From a virus, in IMG/VR virus record IMGVR_UViG_3300046355_000213, positions 61,035 to 125,034 of that record: 64,000 nt of DNA; one strand, written 5' to 3'. Each line of letters begins with the position of its first letter. Position 1 is the stretch's first letter. Under the pieces are notes generated by a model. That model was not told the DNA's origin. It was given only the letters and a program-made list of their open reading frames with translations, and made no database searches. This document shows, one piece after another, positions 46,078 through 51,248 of this stretch. The translations under genes were made by a program, and so were the position numbers.

Positions 46078-46398
46078 TTAGTCAGTGTTCTCATTGATTG
46101 AGCCAACTGTATTTGTTAAAGTAGCTCCCTGGGGAAGAGTTGTTGTAGTTGTTGTACCGCCAGTACTTGTCCCGAATGTAAGGTTGGGTACAGTTATAGT
46201 GCCTGTCCCTGGATAATTGTATGTTCTTGGTGGGTAATTTAGTCCGCCCCATTGTGTGCTTGAAGAAGAAATATTAATCTCAGGCTGCACAATGTCTGCG
46301 TCTAGCAACATCAACGCTTCCTGAAGTGTGATTACATGGGCATCAATGCACTTGGCAAGGATGTCAATTTTTTGCTTATGCCTTTCTTGATTTTCCAT
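46078..46398 (-). CDS. Small protein between PhoH and portal (106 aa)
   Basis: A helical N-terminal third (ERHKQKIDILAKCIDAHVIT, then LQEALMLLDADI) is followed by a Thr/Ser/Gly-rich low-complexity tail (GTSTGGTTTTTTLPQG). The ATG at 46398 is chosen; an in-frame ATG two codons upstream is also possible. It overlaps the PhoH stop by about 20 bases. Unknown function. Confidence 0.6.
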   Translation of the reverse strand: MENQERHKQKIDILAKCIDAHVITLQEALMLLDADIVQPEINISSSSTQWGGLNYPPRTYNYPGTGTITVPNLTFGTSTGGTTTTTTLPQGATLTNTVGSINENTD

Positions 46399-47110
46399 TT
46401 GCATTGTGTTCTAAGAGTTCATCATATTTATCAAGCATTGCTTCCACAACAGGATGTCTGTGGTTGGTTGCAAGTACTACTGATTCACAGTCTTTGACCT
46501 TGTTGGCAATAGACAACAGGGCTTTAAAACCACTGTCACCCCGGGACTTTAAATCTACCTGGGCAGTGTCTCCGCAGATAATCATCTTACTGCGAATACC
46601 CAGGCGGGAGATGATCATAATCATGTTCTCATTGGTGCAGTTCTGCGCCTCATCAACAATGACCACGCTATCAAGGAATGTTCTACCACGCATGAAGGCA
46701 AGGGGTACAATCTCTACCAGTTCATCCTTGATGACTGCATTGACTTTCTCCTTGTTGTATAGTTGGTAGAAGTTAGAATAGATGGGCTGCATCCAGGGCT
46801 CCATCTTTTGATTCAGGTCACCAGGCAAAAAGCCAATCTCTTCTTTAGAGACTGTAGGACGGGTAATCACAATCTTCTTCACCTGCTTCTTAAATAGAAG
46901 ATCCAGCGCTACCTGACATGCCAGTAATGTTTTACCACTACCTGCCTGCCCTGATAGCACCGTAAGGGTGTTATTGAGTATGACCTCCTTTGCTGCTTTC
47001 TGTTCCTCGTTAAGCTGAAGTTGAAACTTGATAGGGCCTTTCTTATCAGCCTTTTCGTCCTCAATCTGCCGAGTTATCTCAGCATGCTTGGCACTTCTGT
47101 TTTCTCCCAT
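46376..47110 (-). CDS. phoH: PhoH-like ATPase
   Basis: 244 residues. Walker A GQAGSGKT (about 55-62) and Walker B VVIVDEAQN (about 149-157) are both complete, with the conserved DTAQVDLKSRGDSGF motif that follows in the PhoH family. PhoH proteins are P-loop ATPases common in large phages; recent work links the family to RNA helicase-like activity, but a phage role is unsettled. Placement between terminase and portal is unusual, which might indicate a part in packaging or late RNA handling. Confidence 0.9.
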   Translation of the reverse strand: MGENRSAKHAEITRQIEDEKADKKGPIKFQLQLNEEQKAAKEVILNNTLTVLSGQAGSGKTLLACQVALDLLFKKQVKKIVITRPTVSKEEIGFLPGDLNQKMEPWMQPIYSNFYQLYNKEKVNAVIKDELVEIVPLAFMRGRTFLDSVVIVDEAQNCTNENMIMIISRLGIRSKMIICGDTAQVDLKSRGDSGFKALLSIANKVKDCESVVLATNHRHPVVEAMLDKYDELLEHNANGKSRKA

Positions 47111-47117
47111 AGGGGGC

Positions 47118-49322
47118 TTATCTTATATTTCTAAAAGGATTTCGGGACGGTCTGGCAGTAGTAGAATTGCCATTGTTTGTACCCATGTGTCTAAAAGGAG
47201 ACCTCATAGATAATTTACTCATTTTTTGCGAGTTCTCCAATTTATCATTGACGACTTCCACTCTTTTTGCTATACCCCTGTTACTTTTTTGCACGTTCAC
47301 AAAAGCTACAAGAGCACAAAATGTTACAAGCCGGTCAACGTTGAGCCCAGGTATATACACTGACATTTCTTTTAAGAGCATTGGGTCAGGTATTCTCTCC
47401 ACTCCGTAGGTTATTTTGGTGACGTTGCCGTCATCATCAGCATCTACGTGCAGCTCTTCCTGCAGGAATTCAATCCCGTAGTTTAACAAGTGCTGCTTAA
47501 ATAGAGTTCCCGTATTCTTCCACCCGTATTCTGAATACACAGAGCGGTTAGCACCCAGGTCTTTGAGGTACAGGATCTGGTCTTTAGGAACCATGTACTT
47601 CTGTTTTCTACGTGATATCATGTACTGGATAAACAAAGACACGTTGTTCTCTATCAGGGTCCAGGCATTGTAGGTCTCAATGATCATTTCCAACCGCTCG
47701 TGGGTTTTCTTTAAGTCATCATAGCGACCTGTCCAGGTACACACAATGCCATCTTTTTCCACATAGGTGCTGACCTTCCCATTACCCTCATCCCGTGTTA
47801 CCTGTATCTCGTTCTTATAAACTATGATTGAACACAAAGAGTCTGAAGTAGTAGTCTTGCCTTCACCCACGGGGTCAATGCTGGCGTAATAGGTTCCCCA
47901 GGGCACATTAGGTATGGGCCTTTCCCACATACAGATCACCCCTTCTTTGTTCTCCGTCTTCATACTGATGGGAAACTCCATAATGGGCAGCTTGTTAGAG
48001 TGCTTGATGACAATCTTGTCATTACCATCACGGGTCATATCCACGTACTCTACCGGGTACTCTTTTTCCTGGATACGTTGTAGCTGTTTGGATACAAGGT
48101 GGGTAGGGAACTTGGCCTCTTTGCGGGATGCAAAAGCCTCTTCAATGTTTCTGGGATGCTGTGAAATTTCCAGCTGGTAGTCCTTGGGATCAAGGTCTTT
48201 TTTCTTTTTGGCAAAGTATTCATCCAGGGCAATTAACGCTTCTTTGACCAGGGAGTTACCATGAGTGTCAATGTACGGAGGCATACTCCACTGCTCGGGA
48301 ATAAATAGTCCTGTTTTACCTAGTGTGCCGTCTTTGTCAATAATGTCTGAGTCTACCGCATAGAAACTATTGGCAGAGGGCTCCAGGATGTATTTCTTTA
48401 AAGGTTCACATTGGTCCAAATCACCGACAGATCCTGCACAGATAAACATACCTGTGGTAAGGAAACCGGATTGTAAGGCTGGTTTAATGAAACCGTAGGT
48501 ATCATCCATCTTTGGGGCAATACCGGCCTCCTCGTGAAAGAAGTAAGTTACCGGTCCACCGACACCGTTAGTAGGGTCTTTCTCAAAAGAGTATGAGTTA
48601 ATGGTTGACTTGAGTCCCTTGTAGGTATTTCTGCCATTGACACGTACCTGAATACGCTGTTGCCAGGCTCCTACTTTTTCCGGTTCCAGCGGTCTGTACC
48701 AGGCAGTGTGTTCGTTCAAGAAGTTCTTGTACTCATCCAGGAATTTCCAGGTTCCTTTTTCATTGATGTAGTCTTTTAGACTAGCTCCCATTTTAAGCAC
48801 CGCTCCTTCTTCAAACCAAAAGGTGTTGATGAGTTTAGCGGCATGGAAATAAGAAGAGGCTATCTGACGTTTTTTTAAGATAACAGCGTGCTCATAATGT
48901 AGCTCGGCCAATTGCTCGTATAGAGCCATGTGATACTGAGCGTCACGGATCTTGGCAAAGTCAAACTTCTTCTCTTCTTTGTCATAAATGGGTAGAAAAT
49001 TAAGCCACATGTAATAGTCCCGGCTGACATACCAGGACTTGTTGCCACTTTTTACAATTACACCGTTACGGCATTTTTCTTTTTGGTCATTCCAGTAGAA
49101 CACAAAGTCCTTGCTCTTAAAAGGAGCGTTGCAGAAATATCCCTGCTGTTGGAATAAGATGGACTGCTCCTTAAAAATAGCAGAAGACACATCATCAAAC
49201 TCATACTTACCAGGTTCTTTGAAGCAGGACTTTACAAAGTCCCTGAACTCTTCCCTGCTTTGAAACAAGGTGGTTGTCCAGTGGCCGCTATCATAGGTTG
49301 GTACTTCTTTATAAAAACTCAT
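47118..49322 (-). CDS. terL: Terminase large subunit
   Basis: 734 residues. The ATPase half has a degenerate Walker A (VILKKRQIASSYFHAAK, about residues 144-160) and a Walker B-like VTYFFHEEAG (about 260-270). The nuclease half starts at YYASIDPVGEGKTTTSDS (about residue 480), with the next acidic site around IENNVS (about 557). The Arg-Gln version of Walker A and overall size match the crAss-like TerL group as I remember it. It cuts and translocates DNA into the capsid. It overlaps the peptidase gene by 4 bases (ATGA). Confidence 0.9.
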   Translation of the reverse strand: MSFYKEVPTYDSGHWTTTLFQSREEFRDFVKSCFKEPGKYEFDDVSSAIFKEQSILFQQQGYFCNAPFKSKDFVFYWNDQKEKCRNGVIVKSGNKSWYVSRDYYMWLNFLPIYDKEEKKFDFAKIRDAQYHMALYEQLAELHYEHAVILKKRQIASSYFHAAKLINTFWFEEGAVLKMGASLKDYINEKGTWKFLDEYKNFLNEHTAWYRPLEPEKVGAWQQRIQVRVNGRNTYKGLKSTINSYSFEKDPTNGVGGPVTYFFHEEAGIAPKMDDTYGFIKPALQSGFLTTGMFICAGSVGDLDQCEPLKKYILEPSANSFYAVDSDIIDKDGTLGKTGLFIPEQWSMPPYIDTHGNSLVKEALIALDEYFAKKKKDLDPKDYQLEISQHPRNIEEAFASRKEAKFPTHLVSKQLQRIQEKEYPVEYVDMTRDGNDKIVIKHSNKLPIMEFPISMKTENKEGVICMWERPIPNVPWGTYYASIDPVGEGKTTTSDSLCSIIVYKNEIQVTRDEGNGKVSTYVEKDGIVCTWTGRYDDLKKTHERLEMIIETYNAWTLIENNVSLFIQYMISRRKQKYMVPKDQILYLKDLGANRSVYSEYGWKNTGTLFKQHLLNYGIEFLQEELHVDADDDGNVTKITYGVERIPDPMLLKEMSVYIPGLNVDRLVTFCALVAFVNVQKSNRGIAKRVEVVNDKLENSQKMSKLSMRSPFRHMGTNNGNSTTARPSRNPFRNIR

Positions 49323-49741
49323 AGGTATGCTTCCATAGTTTTTTCCATCAGGTAGCCTATCAGGTAAGCATAAGCTTCATCTGATCCGTCCACCAATGTT
49401 AACCCCCGGTAATCCAGGATAAAGTCTGTAGCATGAAAGAGTTCATGTACCAGGGTGTTATAATCTCTGGGATCTTTGAGGTCGCTGTACATGCGGATAA
49501 TTACATTACCCTGGATATGTGCGGTCTTGCCTTGTTCCTGGACAATCTGCTGGGCTACAAGATCACATGCTGACTGTGCAGCCTGTTTGTCTGCCCTGTC
49601 CCATATTTTCATGTAGGACCGGATAAACTCTGCATCTGTCTGGTTTATGGAGACTGTTACATAGCCCCCGTAAATAGGTAAACCAATAACAGTGAAGCAT
49701 TTTTTAGCTCTTCTCTGTACTTTCTTTTTGCGAACCGTCAT
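49319..49741 (-). CDS. Zinc metallopeptidase-like protein (140 aa)
   Basis: The motif LVHELFHATDFIL (about residues 97-109) is a classical HExxH zinc site, and SDEAYAYLIGYL further on provides the likely third ligand Glu. The N-terminus is basic (MTVRKKKVQRRAKK). Small peptidases beside terminase genes occur in many phages, some as prohead proteases, but capsid maturation here is unproven. The gene overlaps both neighbours, so it is probably translated together with TerL. Confidence 0.75.
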   Translation of the reverse strand: MTVRKKKVQRRAKKCFTVIGLPIYGGYVTVSINQTDAEFIRSYMKIWDRADKQAAQSACDLVAQQIVQEQGKTAHIQGNVIIRMYSDLKDPRDYNTLVHELFHATDFILDYRGLTLVDGSDEAYAYLIGYLMEKTMEAYL

Positions 49742-49904
49742 CAGTAAACATGGACAAGAGTGGATTTATAGTTTTGGCGTAGACTACACTGTCATACGGG
49801 GCATTACCATTGAGGTATTGCATGTAAAAATCCCGGTGTACACAAGCCCATTGTTTGGTGTACGGGTTAAAGTGAAAGACATGTTGTTGGATTTCTTCAT
49901 TCAT
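49704..49904 (-). CDS. Unknown small protein in anti-defence block (66 aa)
   Basis: The start at 49904 (MNEEIQQHVFHFNPYTKQWA) overlaps the stop of the Tad2-like gene; an upstream in-frame ATG at 49919 adds five residues. The core HFNPYTKQWACVHRDFYMQY looks like a compact conserved segment, but I cannot match it to a known family. Since it is coupled to two genes related to defence inhibitors, it is a candidate third inhibitor. The tail overlaps the peptidase gene by about 38 bases. Confidence 0.6.
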   Translation of the reverse strand: MNEEIQQHVFHFNPYTKQWACVHRDFYMQYLNGNAPYDSVVYAKTINPLLSMFTDDGSQKESTEKS

Positions 49905-50109
49905 AAATTTCCCAGTCATTAGCTAAAAGGTCATCGTCAGCATTCACATAAATACTCTTGGAATACTGGTCGCACTTGTAAATTTTCTTTTCAAATCCCA
50001 CCCCATTTACTGGAGTGATATAAAGCTTGATGTAAGTATCAGGCTTCCAATCTGGTCTTCGCATTTTATGCCCAAAAAGCATCTGCTCCAGCACTTCTCC
50101 AAAATTCAT
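49897..50109 (-). CDS. tad2-like: Tad2-like (DUF2829) protein
   Basis: 70 residues. The N-terminus MNFGEVLEQMLFGHKMRRPDW and the C-terminus DDDLLANDWEIYE match the signature of the DUF2829 family (FGxAL...G..v.R..W at the start and TxxxLAxDWexve at the end). Members of this family include Tad2, which sequesters the signalling nucleotide of the Thoeris defence. Length is at the short end of the family. The start overlaps the preceding gene by one base (TAATG) and the stop overlaps the next gene, so three small proteins are co-translated. The ligand is not known for this protein. Confidence 0.8.
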   Translation of the reverse strand: MNFGEVLEQMLFGHKMRRPDWKPDTYIKLYITPVNGVGFEKKIYKCDQYSKSIYVNADDDLLANDWEIYE

Positions 50110-50375
50110 TACTCCTTCAAAGTCAGGATTTTCACTACATTCATTTGTGCATTGAGGATCTCTCCGTAAGTGTGGTGAAGTAGGTGATGCTTTACTGAGT
50201 TATTAAGTACCAGATTTTCGTTGCCCTCGTATACCAGGTCAGCTAGTTCAGCACATAATTCTTTTGCCCTGGCTACTTTAGGATCCCCCGAAGGATTGAA
50301 GGTGTATCCTACTAACTTTTGACCAAAGGTTGGTTGTGGTAAAGGTTCTAAATCAGTGTAAACTTGGTTTGTCAT
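50109..50375 (-). CDS. Acb2/Tad1-like small protein (88 aa)
   Basis: Start ATG at 50375 (MTNQVYTDLEPLPQPTFGQK); a longer in-frame ORF extending into the tRNA-Cys gene is rejected. LVGYTFNPSGDPKVARAKEL followed by AELADLV, and the C-terminal helix LHHTYGEILNAQMNVVKILT, fit my memory of the Acb2/Tad1 helical-hairpin family (xxxFNPSGxxxVxxxK...A...E...AQMWAVKALT). Proteins of this family form cyclic-nucleotide sponges that block CBASS or Thoeris signalling. The leader AAACACCAACACT precedes ATG. The assignment is from remembered patterns and needs a profile search. Confidence 0.6.
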   Translation of the reverse strand: MTNQVYTDLEPLPQPTFGQKLVGYTFNPSGDPKVARAKELCAELADLVYEGNENLVLNNSVKHHLLHHTYGEILNAQMNVVKILTLKE

Positions 50376-50403: not shown

Positions 50404-50478
50404 GAGTAGGAAGACGGATTCGAACCGCCGTGCACCTGTTTTGCAAACAGAGGGCTAAACCGCTCACCCATTCCTACT
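50404..50478 (-). tRNA. tRNA-Cys (GCA)
   Basis: Acceptor stem AGTAGGA/TCCTACT and anticodon stem TCTGT/ACAGG around loop TTGCAAA give anticodon GCA. T-loop GTTCGAATC is present. CCA is not encoded. It is the last tRNA of the cluster and lies 28 bases before the Acb2/Tad1-like gene. Confidence 0.9.
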
Positions 50479-50482
50479 TGTG

Positions 50483-50565
50483 TTGAAAGAGAGGGATTCG
50501 AACCCCCGTACCCCGAAGAGAGCAGATTTACAGTCTGCCGGTTTTAGCCACTCACCCACCTTTCA
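50483..50565 (-). tRNA. tRNA-Tyr (GTA)
   Basis: Acceptor TGAAAGG/TCTTTCA, anticodon stem GCAGA/TCTGC with loop CTGTAAA, and a long variable arm as expected for bacterial tRNA-Tyr. The discriminator is A. Confidence 0.9.
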
Positions 50566-50600
50566 GTATCAAAACTTGCAGCTTTTACAAGTTTTGCTAG

Positions 50601-50682
50601 TACTCCCAGTCAGACTCGAACTGACACATCTTGCGACACCAGATCCTAAGTCTGGCGTGTCTACCAATTCCACCACGGGAGC
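50601..50682 (-). tRNA. tRNA-Leu (TAG)
   Basis: Acceptor GCTCCCG/TGGGAGT (with G-U ends), leucine-type D-arm GGTGGAATTGGTAGACACG, anticodon stem CCAGA/TCTGG around CTTAGGA, and a long variable arm. Confidence 0.9.
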
Positions 50683-50812
50683 AGTTAAAGAGACTGCGGG
50701 TCTTTCAAGGTTTCTGATTAGCCTGATTTTACTTACACTTACTATAAACCTTTTTTCAGTGTAATCACCATTATCAGAGGTGTGCTAACTACAGCTTCAA
50801 CCATCTCTTTAG

Positions 50813-50886
50813 AGCTTCCTGTAGGATTCGAACCTACGACCACTTGATTACAAATCAGGAGCTCTGGCCAGCTGAGCTAAGGAAGC
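50813..50886 (-). tRNA. tRNA-Thr (TGT)
   Basis: Acceptor GCTTCCT/AGGAAGC is perfect. Anticodon loop TTTGTAA gives TGT. The anticodon stem CCTGA/TCAAG has one C-A mismatch. T-arm GTAGG/CCTAC is intact. About 130 bases with no recognisable gene separate it from tRNA-Leu. Confidence 0.85.
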
Positions 50887-50951
50887 TTATGTCGCATATA
50901 TTAGACATTATGCCCAAAAACAGGGGTTAATGGCTAATATATTAATCATTG

Positions 50952-51022
50952 CACGTCCTAAAGGATTCGAACCTCTACCAACGGTTTTGGAGACCGCTAT
51001 GCTACCATTGCACCAAAGACGC
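50952..51022 (-). tRNA. tRNA-Trp (CCA)
   Basis: Acceptor GCGTCTT/AGGACGT with G-U pairs, anticodon stem GCGGT/ACCGT around CTCCAAA. The discriminator is G, as usual for tRNA-Trp. Confidence 0.88.
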
Positions 51023-51083
51023 GTACTCCAGTCTATTCCTGGATGTCAACTGCCTGCCTACTTTCGCGCTTGGACAGATTCAG

Positions 51084-51157
51084 TAGAGATAATAGGACTC
51101 GAACCTATGGCCACTGACGTATCAGATCAGTGCTCTAACCAACTGAGCTATATCTCT
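51084..51157 (-). tRNA. tRNA-Ile (GAT)
   Basis: Acceptor AGAGATA/TATCTCT, D-arm GCTC/GAGC, anticodon stem CTGAT/GTCAG with loop CTGATAC, T-stem ATAGG/CCTAT. The discriminator is A. Confidence 0.88.
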
Positions 51158-51162
51158 ATTTG

Positions 51163-51248
51163 TAGAGAGTGAGAGGCTCGAACTCTCGCGGCTGTAACAC
51201 CCTACCTCGTTAGCAGTGAGGCCCCTTCACCAACTTGGGTAACTCTCT
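51163..51248 (-). tRNA. tRNA-Ser (GCT)
   Basis: Acceptor AGAGAGT/ACTCTCT, anticodon stem CCTCA/CGAGG with loop CTGCTAA (one mismatch-like pair), and a long variable arm typical of serine tRNA. Confidence 0.85.

What the first reader, a model, noticed from the sequence alone, without database searches (positions are those of the whole stretch)
49704..50375. Three co-translated small genes: Acb2/Tad1-like, Tad2-like and an unknown, a likely anti-defence operon
The 70-residue protein carries the DUF2829/Tad2 signature at both ends (MNFGEVLEQ...G, and LLANDWEI). The upstream 88-residue protein has the FNPSGDPKV...K and AQMxxVK pattern of the Acb2/Tad1 helical hairpin. Both families are known to sequester cyclic nucleotide or gcADPR-type signals of CBASS, Thoeris or type III CRISPR defence. 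Finding them together, overlapping by single bases, just before the terminase is notable. The third gene (HFNPYTKQWACVHRDFYMQY) has no family I know and may be a new inhibitor.
Basis: partly seen in the sequence, partly recalled or inferred. Interest (0 to 1): 0.88.

Follow-up and report, generated by a model that had tools for sequence, protein, structure and literature searches.

The report
Paired signal-sponge genes before phage terminase

Summary
The three ORFs are real. P2 (70 aa) is Tad2-like: Pfam PF11195, 42.3 bits, cut-off 25. P1 (88 aa) has no direct Pfam hit, but its family aligns profile-to-profile with the Acb2/Tad1-hairpin family (99%, E=5e-18). Its AlphaFold model is a short helix plus a long helical hairpin, as described for Acb2. 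Foldseek did not confirm it.

Two scans that did not ask for hairpins support a signal-evasion role. Of 61 distinct Tad2 loci, 5 have a hairpin gene within 3 kb, adjacent each time. Of 71 distinct RyR loci, 7 do, adjacent or fused each time (three RyR-hairpin fusions). Phage RyR proteins are anti-Thoeris proteins (PMC13232231).

P3 differs: its homologues lie directly before terminase in 46 of 48 distinct contigs, usually without sponge genes, so it is probably a core packaging-linked gene. P1 and P2 are cargo in a variable slot (gap -10 to 2558 bp) upstream of P3-TerL. Related contig L252 holds tRNA-Cys, a hairpin gene and a canonical Tad2 there.

Ligands are untested, and P2 has lost the canonical GWNG and SQTD motifs.

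The parts
50109..50375 (-). P1: 88-aa divergent Acb2-type helical-hairpin protein ('NAQMN' subfamily)
49897..50109 (-). P2: 70-aa divergent Tad2-like protein
   Evidence: PF11195 42.3 bits, cut-off 25; GWNG and SQTD motifs lost
49704..49919 (-). P3: 71-aa member of an unnamed phage family; conserved TerL-linked gene, not cargo
   Evidence: TerL follows in 46/48 distinct contigs; variable slot lies upstream of P3
49319..49741 (-). P4: 140-aa HExxH protein between P3 and TerL (phrog_1365, unknown function)
47118..49322 (-). TerL, terminase large subunit, crAss-like
   Evidence: phrog_6681 E 3e-60; about 25% identity to crAss-like TerL
50404..51248 (-). seven-tRNA cluster directly upstream of P1
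51677..52192 (-). D170: conserved 171-aa gene that bounds the variable slot on the upstream side
   Evidence: homologue in 39 of 48 distinct P3 loci

Best explanation
P1 and P2 are a tandem of two small counter-defence proteins, an Acb2-type helical-hairpin protein and a divergent Tad2-type protein. They are carried as cargo in a variable slot between a conserved 171-aa gene plus tRNAs and the conserved P3(-P4)-TerL block of a crAss-like phage. They most likely work as sponges: oligomers that bind and hold cyclic nucleotide signals (CBASS cyclic di- or trinucleotides for P1; cADPR-type or cyclic dinucleotide signals for P2), so that the host's suicide effectors are not switched on. Shown by computation: the family relations, the predicted hairpin fold, the recurrent adjacency with Tad2 and RyR genes, and the slot. 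Inferred: oligomerisation, ligand binding and inhibition of defence. P3 is not part of this set; it is a conserved TerL-linked gene.
For: P2 matches PF11195 above cut-off. P1's family aligns with PF24729-positive hairpins at 99%, E=5e-18; 10 of 23 relatives give weak PF24729 hits; the model is a short helix plus helical hairpin, as described for Acb2. From the Tad2 side, 5 of 61 distinct loci have a hairpin gene within 3 kb and all five are adjacent; from the RyR side, 7 of 71, all adjacent or fused, including fusions L020, L179 and L239. Phage RyR proteins degrade or sequester cADPR signals (PMC13232231). The slot carries Tad2, hairpin and RyR genes in several contigs; L252 repeats the window's arrangement with a canonical Tad2.
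Against: P1 has no direct Pfam match; Foldseek finds no Acb2 or Tad1 for its model; the profile comparison with T4 Vs.4 alone fails. P2 lacks the canonical GWNG and SQTD motifs. In other phages many P1-family genes sit beside GroES-like genes, which a pure anti-defence reading does not explain. Most Tad2 and RyR loci have no hairpin nearby. No binding or defence assay exists.
Confidence: 0.68

Rival explanations
1. All three genes, including P3, form one anti-defence operon and P3 is a new inhibitor.
For: P3 overlaps P2 and is in the same operon-like string; P3 has no known family.
Against: P3 homologues lie directly before TerL in 46 of 48 distinct contigs, mostly with no sponge gene near, including contigs with an empty slot.
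Confidence: 0.1
2. P1's 'NAQMN' subfamily has left signal binding and does another job, perhaps linked to chaperonin or to an essential early function.
For: The NAQMNVVK block is nearly invariant; 23 of 52 distinct P1-family loci have a GroES-like gene nearby, often adjacent, some also GroEL.
Against: Members of the same subfamily are adjacent to or fused with RyR and adjacent to Tad2 (L009, L020, L031, L132). The window's record has no recognisable GroES.
Confidence: 0.2
3. P2 has lost signal binding; it is a decayed or repurposed Tad2 and only P1 is active.
For: Loss of GWNG and SQTD. One PHROG match is annotated as a transcriptional regulator.
Against: It keeps a full-length profile match; frame, length and position are kept in L004 at 59% identity.
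Confidence: 0.25

Closest known systems
Acb2 (phage T4 Vs.4, phage PaMx33 p26) and the Acb2/Tad1 hairpin domain PF24729
   Same: Small helical-hairpin protein; FNP(S) start, conserved V...K in the first long helix and A-x-M-x-x-V-K in the last; short helix plus hairpin predicted.
   Different: P1 itself is not matched by PF24729; the common AxMW is AQMN; T4 Vs.4 scores 71 bits where P1 scores nothing.
Tad1
   Same: Shares the hairpin domain family with P1.
   Different: Tad1 has an N-terminal antiparallel beta-sheet (PMC12043709); P1 has no strands.
Tad2 / AcrIIA7 (PF11195)
   Same: P2 matches the full profile.
   Different: P2 lacks GWNG and SQTD and is shorter than the solved Tad2 proteins.
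Phage SPO1, which carries Tad2 and Acb4 (PMC11722364)
   Same: Precedent for one phage carrying two different sponges.
   Different: Acb4 (PF13876) is a different fold and was not found here; here the two genes overlap as a tandem.
RyDEP, phage RyR-domain anti-Thoeris proteins (PMC13232231)
   Same: RyR genes pair or fuse with P1-type hairpins in related phages and use the same slot.
   Different: The window's record has no RyR gene; the paper's text does not mention Acb2, Tad1 or Tad2.

Membership tests
Acb2/Tad1 hairpin (PF24729) for P1 | Direct profile match above the curated cut-off | tested here: not met
   No Pfam match for P1; none in the record; relatives only weak
Acb2/Tad1 hairpin (PF24729) for P1 | Homology to proven family members through profiles | tested here: met
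   hhalign 99%, E=5e-18 with an alignment whose members mostly pass the cut-off
Acb2/Tad1 hairpin (PF24729) for P1 | Short N-terminal helix plus two long antiparallel helices | tested here: met
   AlphaFold pLDDT 88.9, H17-22, H32-51, H60-85; description of Acb2
Acb2/Tad1 hairpin (PF24729) for P1 | Structural match to solved Acb2 | tested here: inconclusive
   Foldseek best E 4.5, none Acb2, although Acb2 entries exist in the PDB; small hairpins are hard for this method
Acb2 for P1 | Hexamer with cyclic-nucleotide pockets | not testable with these tools
   No multimer or ligand modelling; pocket positions Y11/K26 of Acb2 (own knowledge) appear to map to F26/K38 by alignment only
Tad1 for P1 | N-terminal beta-sheet domain | tested here: not met
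   No strand in the model
Tad2 (PF11195) for P2 | Full-length profile match above cut-off | tested here: met
   42.3 bits, cut-off 25, profile 1-73 of 73
Tad2 (PF11195) for P2 | GWNG and (W)xxSQTD motifs shared with the solved Tad2 proteins | tested here: not met
Tad2 for P2 | Tetramer that binds cADPR-type signals | not testable with these tools
   No assay or complex modelling
Anti-defence cargo, for P3 | Patchy presence in a variable locus, independent of core genes | tested here: not met
   Directly before TerL in 46/48 distinct contigs

The most novel reading that the evidence does not exclude
The helical hairpin is a general scaffold that phages pair or fuse with other signal-binding proteins (Tad2, RyR), making compact cassettes that block CBASS and Thoeris at once. 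The 'NAQMN' subfamily common in crAss-like phages is then an undescribed sponge clade with its own ligand specificity.
Probability: 0.35. Interest if true: 0.72.

Novelty: new variant of a known kind. Interest (0 to 1): 0.52.

Why it matters
If the pairing is functional, crAss-like phages carry ready-made double counter-defence cassettes at a predictable address, between the 171-aa gene and P3-TerL. That address can be read in other crAss-like genomes to find further inhibitors. The RyR-hairpin fusions link a newly described anti-Thoeris domain to the Acb2 scaffold and allow a direct test of whether one protein can neutralise two signalling systems. Showing that P3 is a core terminase neighbour removes a false lead and names an unstudied packaging-linked family.

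Tried and rejected
Promoter and terminator scans were at chance level. NCBIfam gave nothing useful for any of the genes. Foldseek of P1 and P3 against PDB gave no significant fold. P3 against BFVD gave only two good matches, both uncharacterised phage proteins, probably the same family. tblastn of P3 in named phages and a scan of cellular genomes with the P3 family found nothing. Mantel tests were too noisy to use: P3-TerL r=0.24, p=0.004 over 42 loci, but not significant on the loci that also have P1; P1-TerL not significant. Acb4 (PF13876), RyR and GroES were sought in the record and not found. Profile comparison of P1 with P3 showed no relation.

Full report
What is there. The window is part of a 125,034-bp virus record. 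On the minus strand, downstream of a seven-tRNA cluster, run P1 (88 aa), P2 (70 aa), P3 (71 aa), P4 (140 aa, HExxH) and TerL, with overlaps of 1, 23, 38 and 4 bp. TerL belongs to the crAss-like/Flavobacterium phage group at about 25% identity. The phrase 'overlapping by single bases' holds only for P1/P2, and P4 separates P3 from TerL.

P2. Pfam PF11195 (Tad2-like) matches over its full length at 42.3 bits against a cut-off of 25; it is the only copy in the record. Against solved structures it gives only weak hits, to Tad2 and AcrIIA7. Canonical relatives such as L132 score 48-54 bits against the SPO1 and SptTad2 structures. Compared with them, P2 keeps the FGE start, the W and the DxLAxDW end, but has lost GWNG and SQTD. 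Its family is secure; its pocket is not.

P1. No Pfam, NCBIfam or significant PHROG match. It has 71 related loci in IMG/VR at 34-100% identity, with an invariant NAQMNVVK block in the first alignment. Ten of 23 relatives give weak PF24729 hits. Distant tblastn relatives in Pasteurella, Enterobacter and Providencia phages score 42, 38 and 24 bits, the cut-off being 27. Profile-profile comparison of the P1 family with these hairpins gives 99%, E=5e-18 over 76 columns. The AlphaFold model is a short helix followed by a long helical hairpin, the shape described for Acb2. Two checks did not confirm it: Foldseek finds no Acb2, and the comparison with T4 Vs.4 alone fails. I take P1 as a divergent Acb2-type hairpin protein, not Tad1, which has an additional beta-sheet domain (review PMC12043709).

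Context as a functional test. I scanned IMG/VR from the RyR side and from the Tad2 side without asking for hairpins. Of 61 distinct Tad2 loci, five have a hairpin gene within 3 kb, and it is the immediate neighbour in each (L132/L245, L252, L273, L302, L316). Of 71 distinct RyR loci, seven have one, all adjacent or fused. Loci hold roughly 6-16 genes, so by my rough estimate this adjacency has a chance of order 1e-3 or less in each set. Three proteins are RyR-hairpin fusions (L020, L179, L239). RyR is the most frequent Pfam family among 133 neighbours of P1-family genes. Phage RyR proteins were reported in 2026 to degrade or sequester 2'cADPR and 3'cADPR (PMC13232231). This is the best evidence that the hairpin family, P1's subfamily included, works against nucleotide immune signals.

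The slot. In related contigs the order is exonuclease, D170, variable genes, P3, TerL, then a large gene that is probably the portal. The D170-P3 gap runs from -10 bp (empty) to 2558 bp. Of 63 proteins scanned (62 slot genes plus the L020 fusion), Pfam finds SNase (9), Tad2 (3), Acb2/Tad1 hairpin (3), RyR (3), glycosyltransferase-like (3), DUF5522 (2) and single hits. L252 has D170, tRNA-Cys, hairpin, canonical Tad2, a 238-aa gene, P3 and TerL, close to the window's arrangement.

P3. At least 198 relatives exist in IMG/VR. In 46 of 48 distinct loci TerL follows, usually with no sponge gene present. No significant family match, solved fold, named phage or cellular genome was found. It is best read as a conserved gene of the packaging block. 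Its exact role is unknown; F, H, W, R and Y residues are invariant.

Possible trace of insertion. About half of the P3 homologues begin with a short [E/Q]xYxDxE leader. In the window, L004 and L252 that leader is instead at the start of P1, and P3 lacks it. One reading is that the P1-P2 cassette landed behind the old P3 start in an ancestor of this group. This is inference.

How it would work. P1 would oligomerise and hold cyclic oligonucleotides; P2 would hold a second signal; together they would keep CBASS- or Thoeris-type effectors off. Sponges that act on both systems are established (PMC12043709), and SPO1 carries two different sponges (PMC11722364). Nothing here shows binding. The main doubts are P1's missing direct profile match, its GroES-linked relatives in other phages, and P2's altered motifs.

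Noticed in passing
L020/L082:143-874, L179:2983-3633, L239:2977-3606; operons in L009, L031, L032, L084, L148, L188: RyR domain fused to, or directly beside, an Acb2-type hairpin: a possible combined anti-Thoeris/anti-CBASS protein.
   Followed up: partly
L063, L068, L051, L005, L007, L023, L026, L031 and others: P1-family genes sit near a GroES-like gene in 23 of 52 distinct loci, often adjacent and sometimes with GroEL; no explanation.
   Followed up: partly
window 50340-50375 and the N-termini of P3 homologues: The same short leader (NxVYTDLE-like) begins P1 in the window group and many P3 homologues elsewhere, in two unrelated proteins.
   Followed up: partly
window 49319-49741 (-): P4 carries a HELFH (HExxH) metallopeptidase-like motif, phrog_1365 of unknown function; a different small HExxM-type protein lies between GroES and P1 in L048, L067 and L070.
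   Followed up: no
L018:2589-2972: A MazG-like protein (judged from its sequence; one PRA-PH Pfam hit occurs among the neighbours scanned) lies directly upstream of a P1-family gene.
   Followed up: no
L020:143-280, L006:2866-2990, L148:4845-5000: A small cysteine-rich DUF5522-like segment is fused in frame before different slot genes; shown by Pfam for L020 and L006, by sequence likeness for L148.
   Followed up: no
window 46376-47110 (-): A PhoH-like ATPase gene follows TerL; in many relatives PhoH lies upstream of the slot instead.
   Followed up: no
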